This document shows positions 2,605 to 27,202 of a stretch of DNA of 64,000 nt, piece by piece. A program made the position numbers and the translations under genes. The DNA is from Fibrobacter sp. UWT2 (GTDB lineage: Bacteria > Fibrobacterota > Fibrobacteria > Fibrobacterales > Fibrobacteraceae), in NCBI RefSeq assembly GCF_900142545.1, contig NZ_FRBF01000009.1, forward strand, positions 1 through 64,000. Direction: 5' to 3'. Each line of letters opens with the position of its first letter. The stretch's first letter is position 1. The notes under the pieces were generated by a model. The model was not told the DNA's origin. It did no database searches and was given only the letters and a program-made list of their open reading frames with translations.

Positions 2605-2970
2605 CTAAATTTCGCCCTTGGCTTTCTGTTCCTTAAACTTGTCGCGGGCAGCAATCCATTCGTCAATCAATCGTTTGAGTTCAGATGTCTCGACGGTGAT
2701 TTCCGAAGAATCTCCCTCATTTGCGAAATTGTCGACGATTAGGGTTTCTTTGAGGCCAATATTCCAATAACACTCGTTGCCGGAGCACTCAATATGTCTT
2801 TTCTTCTTGGAAAGAACCTGTTCGATTTGCTCTAGGATAGTTTTGTAGAAATTCACAACCTCTCCAGTGAAGAAGTTCGTGAGTATTCCTGTTTCTTCTT
2901 CAAAGGCAAAGTATAGAAAGTCCTTTTTTCCTTCAAATTCAAGGTATTTAATTGCGTAATTGTAATTCAT
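2605..2970 (-). CDS. Presumptive immunity protein for the EndoU-type toxin
   Basis: A 121-residue acidic cytosolic protein with no signal peptide or membrane segment. Its ATG overlaps the stop of the upstream toxin gene in the arrangement TAATG, which implies translational coupling and fits a toxin-immunity pair. I cannot assign a sequence family with confidence. The mid-region SGNECYWNIG and the C-terminal helix ELKRLIDEWIAARDKF faintly recall YacL-like immunity proteins. Function is inferred from position, size and acidity. The two other neighbours (DUF4417, Type III R-M) give no alternative explanation. Confidence 0.6.
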   Translation of the reverse strand: MNYNYAIKYLEFEGKKDFLYFAFEEETGILTNFFTGEVVNFYKTILEQIEQVLSKKKRHIECSGNECYWNIGLKETLIVDNFANEGDSSEITVETSELKRLIDEWIAARDKFKEQKAKGEI

Positions 2971-3665
2971 TAGTTTTCCTCCATAATCGGAAATGCACTT
3001 GAGATTTTTCCATTTGGGCTAATTCGCATTTTTATTTTCACACCTTCCTTTGAATATCCATAAAATATTTTACCAGAAGGATCTATTGCGCTTTTACCTT
3101 TGTACGCCTCGTTTATCGCATTCACGATATGTTGCGGTGACCAGTGTTCGGGGAAGAATGTTGACATTCCGCCCATTGTGCGTTTTCGGACTCCGTTGAC
3201 CTTGACTTTACCTTGATATACTCCTTTGGTATCTGGGGATGATTTTGTCCCGGGAATAATTTGTCCTTCAGCATTCTTGATTACCTCGGTATGGTAACCC
3301 GTCGCCTCCAATCGTTTCTTCCCTTTGCCCGCAGAAGCGAGTTTGACCTCCCCATTAAATATATGTTTTATTAGGCCAGATTCAAAGTGTTCCGTCTGCT
3401 TTAGCCCTTCTAAATCACCCTTGAAGTATTTTAATGGTGAATTATTCGGGACCTCGGTCTGATAAAGTTCCGGACGATTCTGCTTTGCGAGTTCCTCTTC
3501 AGGAAAAAGCGTTGTTTGAATGTACTTTTGCGGGAGCTCGTTCAACAAATGCTGATACTCCTTTGGCAATTCCGGTAGTTTGTAAACAACCCCCGGCTGG
3601 GTTGAGGCTTTTTCACCCATGATTTTTTTCTCCGTGCCTTGCGGCGGAAAATGTGAAATCTTCAT
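2970..3665 (-). CDS. EndoU-family bacterial RNase toxin
   Basis: A 231-residue protein whose residues from about 95 to the end match the bacterial EndoU nuclease toxin domain: HIFNGEV (His101), GYHTE (His125), PDTKGVYQGKVKVNGVRK, STFFPEHWSPQHIVNAINEAY. The paired histidines followed by K-x-T/S and the FP-x-W-S motif are the catalytic and fold signatures of this RNase family. The N-terminal ~90 residues are Pro/Glu-rich and carry no Rhs, CDI, signal-peptide or membrane feature. An internal ATG at 3618-3620 with GGAG about 10 nt upstream may be the true start, giving 216 residues. The downstream overlapping gene is the likely immunity partner. How the toxin leaves the cell is not visible. Confidence 0.8.
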   Translation of the reverse strand: MKISHFPPQGTEKKIMGEKASTQPGVVYKLPELPKEYQHLLNELPQKYIQTTLFPEEELAKQNRPELYQTEVPNNSPLKYFKGDLEGLKQTEHFESGLIKHIFNGEVKLASAGKGKKRLEATGYHTEVIKNAEGQIIPGTKSSPDTKGVYQGKVKVNGVRKRTMGGMSTFFPEHWSPQHIVNAINEAYKGKSAIDPSGKIFYGYSKEGVKIKMRISPNGKISSAFPIMEEN

Positions 3666-4007
3666 GATTCGCTGCCCGAAGGCAACAATCCAAAACCCAT
3701 TAGACAGTCACAGCCTAATAGTTGATTGATTACTCTTTTAATTTCAGTTTATGTCGCTATTTTTGCTTTACACCTCCTTTTTTGTTATCGGAACATACGT
3801 GCCAAGAAAGCTGCCTGTTTTTTTGAGCGCCTTCCCAATACAATATTTAGTCGTCAAAACTTAAAATCAGCATTTTCAGTCTCATTATTTTTGTTTAGCC
3901 CCTTCACCCTGTAAACTACACGGAAGAATTCAACCCATTTGTATATTTTACACTCTTTAGACCTTTGTTAGGTCCTTTTTGACACAAGTTTTTTTTATGA
4001 ATAAAAA
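3666..4007. other. Intergenic region with a plus-strand terminator-like hairpin
   Basis: No convincing gene. A 62-codon frame from a TTG at 3726 has no ribosome-binding site. At 3958-3980 AGACCT-TTGTT-AGGTC is followed by CTTTTT, an intrinsic-terminator-like hairpin on the plus strand, although no plus-strand gene is apparent upstream. Confidence 0.45.
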
Positions 4008-4181
4008 GGCGTGGTGTCGAATGCACTTACTCAATCGAGGCTCTGGCAAGCCCATAACGCAATAAGCACAAACGACCCACGCCCAAAGGGGTGCGGCAAG
4101 AGTCTGTCCATTGCGTTATTTTTTGAAATCTGCCAGAATTTCGATCAATTAAACAAGGACTCTGTCAAAAGTCTATGTCAA
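4008..4181 (-). ncRNA. Covarying pseudoknot-like element, copy A, downstream of res
   Basis: It shares long conserved blocks with copy B at 8890-9094: GTCGAATGCACTTACT, GAGGCTCTGG, AATAAGCACAAACGACCCAC and CTATGTCAA. Between the blocks the sequences differ but stay complementary. In this copy TCTGGCA (4042-4048) pairs TGCCAGA (4131-4137), ATAACGCAAT (4054-4063) pairs ATTGCGTTAT (4110-4119), and ATCGA (4034-4038) pairs TCGAT (4141-4145). GGCGTGG (4008-4014) pairs CCACGCC (4077-4083), which lies in the loop of the first helix, so the fold is a pseudoknot. Read on the minus strand the last stem arm is followed by TTTTT, like an intrinsic terminator. It could be a small RNA or a folded recombination site; I cannot name a family. 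Confidence 0.65.
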
Positions 4182-4239
4182 ATACAATTATCTAAAGTAT
4201 TGATTGTCTCCTTAAGCTATTTCAGCATTTGTATAGCCA

Positions 4240-7020
4240 TTACCCTTGCATCAATTTCCAACCTTCAGCAAGGTTGCCCTTTTCATCCTTGTAACGATAT
4301 TTTTCGGCACTGTTGCAATACCACAGTTTATTTTCACGAACACACAAGCCGCCAACAAATTTTTCTGTGCCGGCAAGAGCATTCAAATCACGCAACTTTT
4401 TCGAAAGGGCTTCTGCGCGTCCTTCAGGATTGGCGGCAGTAAACCCACTCTTAGTATCAAAAATACCGATGCGGCCATCCAAAAATTTTACAATCCAGTC
4501 GGGATAGAAGAGCCGTTCTCGATTTTCGGTGGTGTTGAAATACTTGAGTGCGTAAAAATCCTTGCCGTCATCATTCTGCTTAAACCACCATTCTACTGTA
4601 ACTAGGTTTTCAAGAAACTCGATAAAAGCGATTTCGTTATCGCGTCCTGAATATTCTGCTTTAAGTTTGAATGGACGAAGCATACTCTTCTTGCTAGCGT
4701 TATAATCAACATAATCGCTCGAATACGCATAAGATGTCTTGACCTTGAACGGCAAGGCTTCCTGCATTTCCTGTTTGCGACGTTCGGCAACAAACGCATC
4801 GCGAATGGGTCTGTAATCCTTGAGAGCCTGAGTAATAGCTTTGCGGAATACACTTGCAGAATTCTTGAATAAGTCCTTCAAGAAAATTTTGTAGCGACCG
4901 ACATTATCAATGTTCGTCATTGAATAGCGTTCAAACCATTGGCGAAGAGCTTCTTTGAAGGGTCCCCAAGAACGAGCTATGTTGCCATATTTAGCATCGG
5001 GTTCGGTCTGTTCTTCCAAAATGTTGTAGCAAGCATTCATGAAGTTCTTTTCGACTTCATTGTCGCTCATCTCATGCTCTACATTCTTGCCTAAATCGTT
5101 GGTCCCTGCAAAAGTTGCATTCGCCAAGACTTCGGTTGAAAGTGTCTGAGACATATCTATGCCAAATTTTTCAAGAACGCCCTCTTGAGCAAACGGATTG
5201 TTATAAACATTTTCGTTAATTCCAAAATAGTTGTTCATCGACTTGACAAATGAACTCTGGAAACTACTTGCCTTACCAATATCACCATAGTCTGCACGGC
5301 TAATGAAATCGCTCTTCAAAAGTGGATCAACGATGAATGAAGACTGCTGTTTTTGAACGAGCGTTTCTGCAAAATCGCGGGTAGCCTCAGCGACAATTTC
5401 GGTAGCCTTATTTGCAACGCTCTCTCCGAAATGTTCCGTCAATATAGCCTTGACATTTCGAGTTGCCGTTTCAACAATTTGTTCTGTCTTTTGAATTTTT
5501 GATGCTGGAGAATCAATTTCGCCAAAAAGATTCAATTCGGGATGATTATCGGACAATATTCCCGGGTTTGTCGATAATTCAGGAGCAACCTGTTTAACAG
5601 CTTCTTTTAACGCAGCTTCAATTTTAGGCGCAACATCTGAAATAGGCTTATCTGAGCCATTTGCAACCAATTTATCAAACATAGAACTTTTCAGTTCTTG
5701 TAAGACATTGTGCGTTGCTTCTTGCGTAGCAAACCTTCCGAAGAGATGCGGTGCAAGATTTGTCACTTCTGTTTTAGGTTTATTTTCAACAGTATCGGGA
5801 ATGTCGGAGATTTCATTTTTGCGGTAGTTCGTGTAAAGGAATCCTTCGCGAAGTTCGGGGAACGCCGTCAAATCAATTTTAGGAACAGGGTTGCGTAAAA
5901 TTCTTCCGAGAGTCTGTGTTTTGAATGTTGGCGATTCTATTTCACGGAACATCACGATAACATGAGCTCGAGGGCAATCCCACCCCGTTCCAGCCGCATA
6001 CTTGAAAAGTATAAAATCTACGGGACTATCGGCATCTGAAATATGCTCAAGATTTTCTTTCTTGTTGTCAAACCATTTGGCAATTTTATTTGCTGGAACT
6101 TCGCAATTTTCAGTCAAAAACCTTGTGACGAGCTCTTCCTTCGTTTCTACGCCTTGGTCCTTGAGTTTAGAGTCATCGTTTGGCAACTGAATTAGAACGA
6201 GCGGGTTGATATTTTGTCCGAGGCGAGTCCACTGCACTGCCAAAGATTCCCGTTTCTCCTTAGCGAGTCGCAGCAAGGCAAAATCCAAATCTTCACCTTC
6301 AATGGTTCTCAAATCTTCTTCTGTTTGCGAAATAATCTGTTCCTTGATAAGACCTGCAGCCACAACATCGGAGCGTTTGACTTCAACATAGCCTGCACGC
6401 AGATTTTGCACATCGCTAATGTTGGGGATTTTTTCAGGTGTCGCGGAAACATTCAATATGATTCGTGGATTAAGTGGCGTAATAACATCACGATAAGCCG
6501 ATGCAGTCACGTTCTTGTGGCTTTCATCGATAATCATCACAATTTCGCGACCTTCTTTCTTTGTATTTTCCGCGATATCTTCAAAGTAGAATCCCTGTTC
6601 TTTTTGCAACTCAACTTCATCGGGGCGACGCAACAAACGTTTTTTTGCATCTTTTGCCACCAACTTTTGCCAATTCAAAAACAGGATATCGTCTTTATGC
6701 AAAACCCCTTCGGAAAAATCCGCAATGGTCAAGAGACTTCGCCCGATATTTGGGAAAAAGTAATCGTAAAACTTGTCGCGGCTTTGCATCGCAAGATCGT
6801 CTGAGAAAGTAATCCAAACGAAAGCGACATCGTCATTAAAAGCGGGATCATTCTGCAGTTCACGAACAAAATTTGACACCATGAAAGTCTTGCCAGAACC
6901 AGTCGGAGACTTGAATGTAATATCGAGATTATGGTCGCCTGTTTGCCAAAGTTTCTTGAATGTCTCTACGAGACCGTTCGTGCCGAGGACCGCGTTTTCT
7001 TGGAAAGGAAGCATCTGCAT
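4240..7020 (-). CDS. res: Type III restriction enzyme, Res (helicase-endonuclease) subunit
   Basis: A 926-residue Res subunit that forms the ATP-dependent Type III restriction enzyme with Mod. SF2 helicase motifs are visible: Walker A SPTGSGKTF (residues 38-46), DESH (165-168), SATPEKIP, and the late GTGWDCP...TLGRILRNP block (motifs V-VI). The C-terminal nuclease has the PD...D-x-K pattern in YPDWIVKFLDGRIGIFDTKSG (from about residue 839). Length is normal for Res and the frame is intact, so the enzyme is probably active. It starts 4 nt after the mod stop, which implies one operon. The region is AT-richer than the core genes and is bounded on both sides by copies of the same folded element. 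Confidence 0.95.
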   Translation of the reverse strand: MQMLPFQENAVLGTNGLVETFKKLWQTGDHNLDITFKSPTGSGKTFMVSNFVRELQNDPAFNDDVAFVWITFSDDLAMQSRDKFYDYFFPNIGRSLLTIADFSEGVLHKDDILFLNWQKLVAKDAKKRLLRRPDEVELQKEQGFYFEDIAENTKKEGREIVMIIDESHKNVTASAYRDVITPLNPRIILNVSATPEKIPNISDVQNLRAGYVEVKRSDVVAAGLIKEQIISQTEEDLRTIEGEDLDFALLRLAKEKRESLAVQWTRLGQNINPLVLIQLPNDDSKLKDQGVETKEELVTRFLTENCEVPANKIAKWFDNKKENLEHISDADSPVDFILFKYAAGTGWDCPRAHVIVMFREIESPTFKTQTLGRILRNPVPKIDLTAFPELREGFLYTNYRKNEISDIPDTVENKPKTEVTNLAPHLFGRFATQEATHNVLQELKSSMFDKLVANGSDKPISDVAPKIEAALKEAVKQVAPELSTNPGILSDNHPELNLFGEIDSPASKIQKTEQIVETATRNVKAILTEHFGESVANKATEIVAEATRDFAETLVQKQQSSFIVDPLLKSDFISRADYGDIGKASSFQSSFVKSMNNYFGINENVYNNPFAQEGVLEKFGIDMSQTLSTEVLANATFAGTNDLGKNVEHEMSDNEVEKNFMNACYNILEEQTEPDAKYGNIARSWGPFKEALRQWFERYSMTNIDNVGRYKIFLKDLFKNSASVFRKAITQALKDYRPIRDAFVAERRKQEMQEALPFKVKTSYAYSSDYVDYNASKKSMLRPFKLKAEYSGRDNEIAFIEFLENLVTVEWWFKQNDDGKDFYALKYFNTTENRERLFYPDWIVKFLDGRIGIFDTKSGFTAANPEGRAEALSKKLRDLNALAGTEKFVGGLCVRENKLWYCNSAEKYRYKDEKGNLAEGWKLMQG

Positions 7021-7024
7021 ATTG

Positions 7025-8821
7025 TTACCCGTTCAAAGCCTTGTAGATTTCGAGAATCGGTTTGGGAATCGCCTTGATTTCGATGTTTTTCAAATCATCG
7101 AATTCGTTTTCAAAGAAGTCAGGAGAATTCCAGCTGAATACATAAACCGTAAATTTTGACTTTTTATCAGTAGCACGTAATTCATCGATTTTTGCAACAA
7201 AATCAGGAACTTTACCATAATCGCCATTATGGTAAATACAGGTATAGCGCTTTTTCTTTTCTGCATTATCAGAATAGATTTGCCAGAAGCCCTTTGCGGC
7301 CTTGGGGACCTTGATTGTTTCCAAGGTGTTTTCTGCTAGTGCGATAAGGCAACCTGCTTTTTCAGCAAGTTCCACCTTGTCTGCATCATTGGCATTTTTG
7401 CTCTGATGCTTGCCGACGAAGCCAGTCTTGTAGTATTTAAGAGAACCACCTAAACCATCGACGCTTTCCCCCTTTGCGTTTGTGTAGCCACACATTACAC
7501 GACGATTACGCTCGTATGTAACATTTTCACAGATGTTGTTGTCGCCTTCTGACTGCTGAACAAGAATGCATTGGCGAATACCATCATCCTCTTTATTAAG
7601 ATTGAGTGTGGCATGTAGAGTCGTGCCAGAGCCTGCGAAGAAGTCAAGAATGGTTATATTTTTCCGAATCGAGCTCATGCGAATAATTCTGTCTATCAAG
7701 TCTACAGGTTTGGGATAGCTAAAATCATCGTTTTGAAGAATTTCTTTTAGCAATGAAGCTCCTGTAGAATTATCAATATCATCTATCCAACTTGAATAGG
7801 GCTTTGTACTTTCTTCATTTGGATTATCATAGATCCTTTCATATGGAATCCATTCACCTTTTCTGTTTTTTTGTATTTCAACAAGTCCTTTATGAAAAGC
7901 ATCTTCCATTGTACTTTTGCCCCATCGCCAGCGTCCTTCATTATCCGAATCAAGCATTGGATATATTTCCAAAGAATTCTTCGATTTAGATAGGCTAAAC
8001 TCATTGGTAGAATTGTTGTAATAAATTGGATAAAATAAATTTGGACGATTTTCTCTTTTACTATTATCACCCCATTTCCGGAGTAATTGAGTTTTATAAT
8101 GGAGCTTTTTAGATTCGTCAAATAAAGGGAAATTTTTTCCTTTAATCATTCTTCCTGATTCAAACTTATCTAACCTCTTTGCATATCCTTGAATATATTC
8201 GTGAACTATTGCATAGTATTTGCTATCCTGACGTCCACCAATTCCCTTTCGTGGGAAAGCCGTTAGTAAATTTCCTTCCCCAAATACTTTATCACACAAC
8301 AACTTTAAATTCGCTTGTTCGTTATCATCAATACTGATGAAAATCACCCCCTTATCACTCAGCAAATTCTTTGCCAACTTCAAACGCTTTTCCATAAACG
8401 AAAGCCAATAGCTATGGCGAAGCGGATGTTCCTTAGGAACTTTTTGACCATCGGGAAATTCTGTCAAGAAACGTTTGTCCTTGTAAGTAAATCCATCCGA
8501 ACCCGTGTTATACGGCGGATCAATGTAGATGACATCAATTTTGCCACGGTGAGTGTAATTCAAGCAAGTGAGTGCGTGGTAGTTGTCGCCTTCGATAATC
8601 ACATGAGGAGGTTTTCCTGTCAACGGACCTTCCGCATCTACGGCCTTTTCGGCGACTTCTTCGAGAATTGGAATTTTGTCTTCGGAATCCTTGTCAAAGG
8701 CTTCAGGAACGTCCATCCAGTTGAGCCCATAGCGGACACTCTTGACCTGAGACTTCCAGCGTTCGACTTCTTTTTCCAATTCGCGGATGCGAATCTTGAG
8801 ACCATCCAATGTTTCTGCCAC
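7025..8821 (-). CDS. mod: Type III DNA adenine methyltransferase, Mod subunit
   Basis: A 598-residue N6-adenine methyltransferase that also supplies sequence specificity for the Type III complex. The catalytic motif DPPY is at residues 101-104 (IYIDPPYNTGSDGF) and the AdoMet-binding FAGSGT at about 395-400, so motif IV precedes motif I as in beta-class enzymes. The roughly 290 residues between them form the target-recognition region. The GTG start (8819-8821) is chosen because GAGG lies 5-6 nt before it on the minus strand. There is no simple-sequence tract in the 5' part, so phase variation of the kind known for mod genes of pathogens is not evident. It lies directly upstream of res. Confidence 0.95.
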   Translation of the reverse strand: MAETLDGLKIRIRELEKEVERWKSQVKSVRYGLNWMDVPEAFDKDSEDKIPILEEVAEKAVDAEGPLTGKPPHVIIEGDNYHALTCLNYTHRGKIDVIYIDPPYNTGSDGFTYKDKRFLTEFPDGQKVPKEHPLRHSYWLSFMEKRLKLAKNLLSDKGVIFISIDDNEQANLKLLCDKVFGEGNLLTAFPRKGIGGRQDSKYYAIVHEYIQGYAKRLDKFESGRMIKGKNFPLFDESKKLHYKTQLLRKWGDNSKRENRPNLFYPIYYNNSTNEFSLSKSKNSLEIYPMLDSDNEGRWRWGKSTMEDAFHKGLVEIQKNRKGEWIPYERIYDNPNEESTKPYSSWIDDIDNSTGASLLKEILQNDDFSYPKPVDLIDRIIRMSSIRKNITILDFFAGSGTTLHATLNLNKEDDGIRQCILVQQSEGDNNICENVTYERNRRVMCGYTNAKGESVDGLGGSLKYYKTGFVGKHQSKNANDADKVELAEKAGCLIALAENTLETIKVPKAAKGFWQIYSDNAEKKKRYTCIYHNGDYGKVPDFVAKIDELRATDKKSKFTVYVFSWNSPDFFENEFDDLKNIEIKAIPKPILEIYKALNG

Positions 8822-8889
8822 GTGAACCTCACGGCTAAGGGTGCACGCCCTTATTTAGTGCTGTTCGCGTCACAGCTTTAAATAAAAAA

Positions 8890-9094
8890 GCGTGGCGTCG
8901 AATGCACTTACTGAAGTGGAGGCTCTGGAAAACCTATCTATAAATAAGCACAAACGACCCACGCCCATTGCTGGACGTGAGCGCTCGCCTTATTCTCAAT
9001 AGATTTTGAAATTTTCCAGATTTCCACTTCGAGAATAAGAGCTAACTCTACGTTAAACTCGTGCCCTGCACCACGAGGTGCAGAGCTATGTCAA
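8890..9094 (-). ncRNA. Covarying pseudoknot-like element, copy B, upstream of mod
   Basis: Second copy of the element at 4008-4181, in the same orientation. Conserved blocks are kept while the helices change on both sides. GAAGTGGA (8913-8920) pairs TCCACTTC (9023-9030), TCTGGAAAA (8924-8932) pairs TTTTCCAGA (9012-9020), ATCTAT (8936-8941) pairs ATAGAT (8999-9004), and AATAAG (8943-8948) pairs CTTATT (8989-8994). GCGTGG (8890-8895) pairs CCACGC (8959-8964) in the loop. An extra hairpin CTGCACC-ACGA-GGTGCAG (9066-9083) is present only here. On the minus strand the element ends in a U-run about 65 nt before the mod start. Confidence 0.65.
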
Positions 9095-9127
9095 TGGGAA
9101 ATATAAATAATTGGAAGAGAAAAGGAG

Positions 9128-12368: not shown

Positions 12369-12809
12369 CTAAATCTCGATGCTTTCTTCGTCGCTAGTGA
12401 TGAATGCCTTCAGGCGTTCAATGGTACGGTCGAAATCGTTCTTGATGGAGCATTCCCACACAGTGGCGACGCGGTAGCCTTGTAGCGAAAGCTTCCAGTT
12501 TGTCTTGACGTCACGCACGACATTGTTCGTGAACTTTTCGTTCCAGAATTCGGGATTGCTTTTGGGGCGGCTTGTGAACTTGCAGCCGTGTTGGTGCCAG
12601 AAACAGCCGTTTATAAAAATGACCACGCCATGCTTAAGAATATACAGGTCTGGCGTGCCTGGCAAATCGCGGCGGTGGAGCCTATAGCGCAGCCCCGCTT
12701 TAAAAAGCGCTCGGCGTACTAAAATTTCTGGTTTCGTATCTACGGAATGAACCGCCTGCATCATCTGCGAGCGGTTCATTGGAAGACGTTTTTTCTGGCG
12801 ACGTTTCAT
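12369..12809 (-). CDS. vsr: Very short patch repair endonuclease (Vsr)
   Basis: A 146-residue Vsr-like nuclease, which nicks DNA at T:G mismatches produced by deamination of 5-methylcytosine. Motifs: MNRSQMMQAVHSVDTKPE at the N-terminus, RYRLHRRDLPGTPDLYI (the catalytic Asp lies in GTPDL), VVIFINGCFWHQHGCK and GYRVATVWEC. A second possible start, the Met of MNRSQMM at 12776, fits the family length better. No cytosine-5 methyltransferase gene is near it in the window, although vsr usually sits beside dcm. It lies at the inner edge of the accessory island. Confidence 0.9.
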   Translation of the reverse strand: MKRRQKKRLPMNRSQMMQAVHSVDTKPEILVRRALFKAGLRYRLHRRDLPGTPDLYILKHGVVIFINGCFWHQHGCKFTSRPKSNPEFWNEKFTNNVVRDVKTNWKLSLQGYRVATVWECSIKNDFDRTIERLKAFITSDEESIEI

Positions 12810-26991: not shown

Positions 26992-27014
26992 GACGAAGAA
27001 AGTTTCCTGTGCCC

Positions 27015-27178
27015 TGAAAAGCCCATGTGGGAGCCCTACTGGGAGGCCTGCAAGGAGAGAATCCCGTGAAAACCGGGAGCGGTCGCGCCGCTGTAAGGGA
27101 GGACGAAACCGGCATAAACCAATGTCTATATAGATGTGAAGGAGCCGGAAGTAGATGGATCCCCGAGCCAGAAGAACT
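27015..27178 (+). promoter_or_regulatory. Cobalamin riboswitch
   Basis: The diagnostic core is present: GAATCCCGTGAAAACCGGGA (starting about 27058), then GCGGTCGCGCCGCTGTAAG (about 27078-27096) and a distal AGCCAGAAGAACTG (about 27167-27180) corresponding to the B12-box helix. The GCCGG/CCGGC words around 27108 and 27143 form a peripheral helix. It lies about 25 nt before the start of a TonB-dependent receptor. The ribosome-binding GAGGAACG follows directly, which suggests control of translation by adenosylcobalamin-type ligands, known for this family. Confidence 0.9.
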
Positions 27179-27202
27179 GTGGGAAACGCTTTTTGAGGAA
27201 CG

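What the first reader, a model, noticed from the sequence alone, without database searches (positions are those of the whole stretch)
4008..9094. Two covarying, pseudoknot-forming elements flank a complete Type III restriction-modification pair
Seen directly: the elements at 4008-4181 and 8890-9094 lie in the same orientation on either side of res-mod. They share long invariant blocks, but the parts between differ and keep pairing. In copy A TCTGGCA/TGCCAGA and ATAACGCAAT/ATTGCGTTAT pair; in copy B TCTGGAAAA/TTTTCCAGA, GAAGTGGA/TCCACTTC and AATAAG/CTTATT pair. This double-sided change is strong evidence for selected secondary structure. A second helix (GGCGTGG with CCACGCC) reaches into the loop of the first, a pseudoknot. 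On the minus strand both end with the stem followed by a U-run. I know of no described family with these blocks. Possible roles: a small RNA that controls the R-M genes, a defence-related RNA, or a folded single-stranded recombination site.
Basis: partly seen in the sequence, partly recalled or inferred. Interest (0 to 1): 0.85.

Follow-up and report, generated by a model that had tools for sequence, protein, structure and literature searches.

The report
RNA switch before Fibrobacter restriction genes
Fibrobacter, gut bacteria that digest plant fibre, carry in front of many of their virus-defence gene sets (mostly DNA-methylating restriction systems) a family of about 200-letter RNA leaders that can fold in two mutually exclusive ways, one of which would stop transcription before the genes, with pairing arms that change very fast yet stay matched.

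Summary
The two minus-strand elements (A 4003-4179, B 8884-9092) belong to an RNA family found in 60 of 61 genomes of the genus (up to 17 copies each) and in none of 40 outside it. No Rfam family matches, and a named-genome scan gives essentially only Fibrobacter. Pairing is proven by covariation: 97% of cells paired, 559 double changes against 140 in shuffles. The elements do not flank res-mod: each is the 5' leader of its own module (79:1 same strand, typically about 60 nt before the gene). B leads mod-res; A leads an EndoU toxin gene. At least 46 of 103 distinct first genes are DNA methyltransferases of every class. The leader holds two mutually exclusive folds: a long hairpin that captures the terminator's 5' strand (minimum-energy state in 78 of 83) and an intrinsic terminator. 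The only promoter-like motif lies upstream. I read it as a cis-acting transcription attenuator for R-M and defence modules; the trigger is unknown. Pairing arms turn over far faster than their surroundings while staying complementary, and 19 of 147 elements carry a second, downstream copy of the 5' arms. A DNA recombination-site role is not supported.

The parts
9100..9105 (-). -10-like hexamer TATATT, 6-7 nt upstream of the RNA start of copy B
   Evidence: TA[TC]NNT at this spacing in 65 of 78 distinct upstream regions; no such enrichment between terminator and gene
8884..9092 (-). Leader RNA B, from GACATAG to the U-run
   Evidence: Covariance hit 159.8 bits; covariation
9063..9086 (-). P0, variable 5' hairpin (GCTCTGCACC/GGTGCAGGGC)
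   Evidence: Compensatory changes in P0 pairs on the MAFFT-only alignment
9031..9041 (-). strand d (CTCTTATTCTC): pairs d' in the terminator fold, h' in the alternative fold
8998..9030 (-). 5' arms a, b, c (hypervariable), complementary to c'b'a'
   Evidence: All 20 pairs with double-sided changes
8973..8997 (-). d' and Y (anti-terminator strand), complementary to X and h
   Evidence: 22-pair helix, 95.1% of cells paired, slid controls at most 57%
8945..8966 (-). X and h, 5' strand of the terminator stem; alternative partner of d'Y
8913..8944 (-). c' b' a', terminator-loop arms
8884..8910 (-). h' and X' (3' strand of the terminator stem) with U-run
   Evidence: X-X' 99% of cells paired, h-h' 95%
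7025..8821 (-). Type III DNA methyltransferase (mod), first gene after leader B
   Evidence: PADLOC MTase_III, E 2.5e-83
4240..7020 (-). Type III restriction subunit (res)
   Evidence: PADLOC REase_III, E 5e-20
4003..4179 (-). Leader RNA A; lacks P0, and its minimum-energy fold already contains the terminator
   Evidence: Covariance hit 81.7 bits; MFE -51.2 with all 11 tested terminator pairs
2970..3665 (-). EndoU-domain toxin-like gene, first gene after leader A
   Evidence: PF14436, E 1.3e-20
2605..2970 (-). 121-aa gene, presumed immunity partner of the EndoU gene
   Evidence: Overlaps the end of the EndoU gene; homologue beside the EndoU gene of L077; function inferred

Best explanation
A Fibrobacter-specific, cis-acting 5' leader that controls R-M and other defence modules by transcription attenuation. 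Transcription starts at about GACATAG. The leader then folds in one of two mutually exclusive ways. In fold 'on', d pairs h', the arms a,b,c pair a',b',c', and d'Y pairs Xh: one long hairpin that holds the terminator's 5' strand, so polymerase reads on into the genes. In fold 'off', d pairs d', h pairs h' and X pairs X', forming an intrinsic terminator before the start codon. Shown: both sets of helices are conserved, they share strands, and the on-fold is the minimum-energy one. Inferred: actual termination, regulation, and a trigger that breaks the abc arms or the d'Y:Xh hairpin (protein, RNA or ligand unknown). In 19 members a second d-abc-d' copy after the terminator can capture c'b'a' from the first copy once transcription has passed.
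For: Downstream gene on the same strand 79:1, typical gap about 60 nt, upstream gene random 33:46. Covariation of both folds. Shared strands (d/h and d'/h' carry the same CTTAT/ATAAG core; X pairs Y or X') explain why these blocks are nearly invariant while the single-partner arms vary. Forcing the terminator costs a median 11.5 kcal/mol; the minimum-energy fold lacks it in 78 of 83. Promoter-like motif only upstream of the RNA. Natural deletion in this genome (C3 near 72,587-72,460, locus L221): promoter and 5' half fused directly to a methyltransferase ORF, terminator half lost, as expected if the gene is transcribed from the leader's promoter. At least 46 of 103 distinct first genes are DNA methyltransferases of N6, N4 and C5 types. 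60 of 61 genus genomes carry the family.
Against: No transcript data. The trigger is unknown. The on-fold is so stable that termination may be rare, and the terminator could be a plain end for an independent RNA. A-type copies lean to the terminated fold. Three of ten testable methyltransferase loci in this genome lack an intact leader (C14, C3:8858, and the truncated C3:72.5k). Some modules are not R-M (acyltransferases, TM2-like and TPR proteins).
Confidence: 0.7

Rival explanations
1. An independent small RNA that acts in trans (for example on the mRNA of its own module through abc2, or as an antitoxin-like RNA), ended by a constitutive terminator; the genes use another promoter.
For: Conserved promoter-like motif, discrete RNA and U-run. 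The tandem class carries a second abc copy in the mRNA leader that is complementary to the RNA's c'b'a' loop and usually has as many or more Watson-Crick pairs with it than abc1.
Against: Nearly every copy sits just 5' of a same-strand gene; no promoter motif in the gap; the terminator strand is sequestered by a conserved competing hairpin; 128 of 147 copies have no second target copy.
Confidence: 0.17
2. A folded single-stranded DNA recombination site or cassette boundary (integron-like), with structure selected at DNA level.
For: Leader plus genes behaves as a module: homology between unrelated loci starts at about GACATAG and ends near the last cargo gene; tandem modules occur.
Against: No sharp 3' end motif. 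No integron integrase above cut-off. Chimeric leaders (L114; L096 at 5187) with mismatched arms show homologous recombination inside the conserved blocks. One-sided changes are mostly G-U on the transcribed strand. Promoter and terminator are conserved.
Confidence: 0.05
3. A guide or toxin-antitoxin RNA that binds the encoded proteins.
For: Always beside defence genes; highly structured; arms hypervariable.
Against: The first genes belong to unrelated families (type I, II, III, ISP, MmeI-like, EcoRI-like, C5, DISARM, EndoU, DUF4417), with no common RNA-binding protein. The variable arms pair internally, so they are not free guides.
Confidence: 0.04

Closest known systems
Attenuator leaders with terminator/anti-terminator exchange (riboswitch-type and protein-gated leaders such as the TRAP-regulated trp leader, and antisense-gated plasmid leaders such as pT181 repC, the last from general knowledge)
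   Same: Promoter, leader, mutually exclusive anti-terminator and intrinsic terminator, gene start soon after
   Different: Controls R-M and defence modules of unrelated families within one genus; four-strand exchange locked by hypervariable arms; no known ligand; a class with a second downstream arm copy
Known R-M control: C proteins, methyltransferase auto-repression, promoter methylation, antisense RNAs of EcoRI and Eco29kI (PMC12707154, PMC3874152)
   Same: Control of R-M expression
   Different: Those act by DNA-binding proteins or antisense transcripts; the 2025 review has no mention of leader, attenuation or riboswitch
STAXI motif (PMC2864571)
   Same: Pseudoknotted RNA motif near genes that handle DNA, including antirestriction genes
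   Different: STAXI is a small tandem pseudoknot; no Rfam family reached its threshold here
ToxIN/AbiF-type defence RNAs (PMC5772629, PMC12373285)
   Same: Structured RNA encoded with a defence gene
   Different: Those are bound to one protein family; here the cargo is unrelated families and the element is a 5' leader

Membership tests
cis-acting transcription attenuator leader | Fixed position 5' of same-strand genes | tested here: met
   79 of 80 downstream genes on the same strand, upstream gene random
cis-acting transcription attenuator leader | Intrinsic terminator before the start codon | tested here: met
   X-X' 99% of cells paired, U-run at the end of nearly all copies; termination itself not measured
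cis-acting transcription attenuator leader | Conserved anti-terminator that excludes the terminator | tested here: met
   d'Y:Xh 95.1% paired; long-hairpin fold found de novo by RNAalifold
cis-acting transcription attenuator leader | Promoter upstream of the leader only | tested here: met
   -10-like motif upstream in 65 of 78; gap comparable to shuffles, 30 against 21 of 147; sequence evidence only
cis-acting transcription attenuator leader | Signal-dependent change in read-through | not testable with these tools
   Needs transcription assays
known Rfam family | Covariance match at the curated threshold | tested here: not met
   only sub-threshold matches
integron attC / folded recombination site | Integron integrase in the genome | tested here: not met
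   TIGR02249: best 77.5 bits against a cut-off of 265
integron attC / folded recombination site | Sharp cassette end at a conserved site on both sides | tested here: not met
   5' boundary at about GACATAG, no shared 3' motif
type III toxin-antitoxin RNA | RNA encoded with a ToxN/AbiF-type toxin | tested here: not met
   Cargo families; no ToxN or Abi_2 family among those shown

The most novel reading that the evidence does not exclude
The hypervariable but always matched arms are a specificity code: each defence module's leader RNA recognises only its own transcript (in cis, and in trans through the second arm copy in the tandem class), so that many R-M modules can be regulated side by side in one cell, and a newly arrived module starts without its own RNA, an RNA-based analogue of C-protein timing and exclusion. 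Not excluded, but my within-genome test was inconclusive (0 of 422 against 9 of 4028 identical arm pairs among unrelated modules; not significant).
Probability: 0.2. Interest if true: 0.92.

Novelty: new variant of a known kind. Interest (0 to 1): 0.78.

Why it matters
R-M expression has been explained by proteins and antisense transcripts; a shared RNA leader put in front of type I, II, III, ISP, MmeI-like, C5 and other defence modules would be a general, transferable control layer. How R-M genes enter and are timed in a new host is an old question, and this makes it testable with leader mutants. The arms are an unusual natural data set: concerted two-sided change (all four variable letters on both sides) between leaders otherwise 99% identical.

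Tried and rejected
Rfam, gathering and permissive thresholds: nothing. Viral contigs: no exact core match. Arm-orthogonality test: not significant. Integron/attC reading: no integrase, no 3' boundary. Upstream ORF in the leader: the ATG in the P0 loop of many copies is absent in others, by eye. The first covariance model mis-registers arm b in some subtypes and misses truncated copies, so copy counts are lower bounds. A5 was fitted to the abc helices; the controls are MAFFT-only alignments A9 and A10. 'Homology ends at the cargo's last stop codon' was checked for a terminal motif; none was seen.

Full report
Observation. Both elements are present as described, lie 4.88 kb apart in one orientation and read as RNA on the minus strand. 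Written 5' to 3', the RNA is: GACATAG - hairpin P0 - d - a b c - d' - Y - X h - c' b' a' - h' X' - UUUUU.

Distribution. A DNA search found more copies in the same genome. A covariance model built from five own-genome copies gives 9 own copies, matches in 60 of 61 genus genomes, and none in 40 genomes outside the genus. A scan of 84,980 named species genomes for the core returns essentially only Fibrobacter; the few contigs under other names look mis-binned. Viral contigs give none. Rfam has no match.

Structure. On 83 aligned copies, six helices hold 97.1% of cells paired; 559 cells have double-sided changes (140 in shuffles) and the covariation score is 0.497 against 0.177, with slid controls at most 0.11. 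That alignment was fitted to helices a-c, so I repeated the test without fitting: on a MAFFT-only alignment of 43 full leaders RNAalifold finds P0, d:h', a:a', c:c' and d'Y:Xh by itself, with 26 of 54 pairs compensated. d'Y:Xh is 95.1% paired, with slid controls at most 57%; Y:X is 94.6% paired. d, d', h, h' and X therefore each have two partners: on-fold d:h', d':h, Y:X; off-fold d:d', h:h', X:X' (terminator). Two partners explain the near-invariance of these blocks, and one partner explains the free variation of a and c. The minimum-energy fold lacks the terminator in 78 of 83; forcing it costs a median 11.5 kcal/mol. The window's A copy differs: its minimum-energy fold contains the terminator.

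Position and cargo. The next gene lies on the same strand in 79 of 80 cases, commonly about 60 nt after the U-run; the upstream gene is random, 33:46. So B leads mod-res and A leads the EndoU gene; they are successive leaders, not flanks. Of 103 distinct first genes at least 46 are DNA methyltransferases (N6_Mtase 20, N6_N4_Mtase 14, C5 9, EcoRI-type 3, counted as non-overlapping; MmeI and Eco57I overlap with these). Others are type ISP, DISARM DrmD, a TPR/MazG/Schlafen-helicase module, DUF4417 and EndoU cassettes, and a few unrelated genes. In the window's genome 7 of 10 testable methyltransferase loci have an intact leader. An eighth (C3 near 72.5 kb) keeps the promoter, P0, d and abc but has lost everything from d' to the U-run and runs directly into the ORF: a natural terminator deletion.

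Promoter. Upstream of GACATAG a TATATT-like hexamer occurs at fixed spacing in 65 of 78 distinct copies. The gap to the gene has only slightly more such sites than shuffles (30 against 21 of 147).

Modules and recombination. The same three-gene cassette (224/139/118 aa) is followed by a second leader and different R-M genes in seven genomes. Homology between loci starts at about GACATAG and ends near the cargo's last stop codon. Leaders L114 and L096 (5187) are chimeras with broken arms, so homologous recombination between leaders moves cargo. No terminal motif or integron integrase was found.

Fast arms. For gene pairs with 95-99% identical cargo the leader outside the arms is 92.0% identical, the a arms 73.5% and the c arms 60.7%. 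L069 (9671) and L070 (7033) have 98.8% identical cargo, 99.2% identical RNA outside the arms, identical c arms, but a arms changed on both sides (43% identical). Whether this serves module specificity is open: identical arms among unrelated modules occur in 0 of 422 within-genome pairs and 9 of 4028 between-genome pairs, not significant.

Second class. Longer leaders with an extra domain of roughly 65 nt between Y and X stand about 250-340 nt before C5, N4/N6 and EcoRI-type methyltransferases. Nineteen of 147 elements (17 long, 2 short) carry a second d-abc-d' copy 42-61 nt after the terminator, with alignment scores of 55-87 against at most 28 in shuffles of those loci. abc2 covaries with c'b'a' on a MAFFT-only alignment (0.416 against 0.186) and usually has as many or more Watson-Crick pairs with it than abc1. 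It can therefore take over c'b'a' after read-through, or bind it in trans.

Conclusion. What is shown: a new structured-RNA family with two competing, selected folds, placed as leader of defence modules. What is inferred: that it attenuates transcription, and that something switches it. By working principle it resembles attenuator leaders; it belongs to no described family I could test.

Noticed in passing
window 26995-27198 (+): Cobalamin riboswitch, 74.5 bits.
   Followed up: no
window 12369-12809 (-): 146-aa ORF that looks like a Vsr mismatch endonuclease, apparently without a neighbouring C5 methyltransferase (from the translation; not searched).
   Followed up: no
L065, L067, L069, L070, L071, L075, L086: A recurrent three-gene cassette (224/139/118 aa; first gene weakly DUF4417) always followed by a second leader and a different R-M system; function unknown.
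   Followed up: partly
L114:7092-7244 and L096:5187-5340: Chimeric leaders whose 5' and 3' halves come from different copies, breaking the arm pairing.
   Followed up: partly
upstream of leaders in L069, L083, L087, L096, L111: A recurring REP-like stretch (CGCGTAGGCGGGGATCTCCCTCTCGCATATTTATATATATTT) ends in the leader's promoter region.
   Followed up: no
L109:3038-3183: Leader with a 13-nt deletion in d'Y; its minimum-energy fold contains the terminator.
   Followed up: partly
L077:8002-10947 and L077:6923-7669: An MmeI-like enzyme and an EndoU gene, each preceded by its own leader, parallel the arrangement in the window.
   Followed up: no
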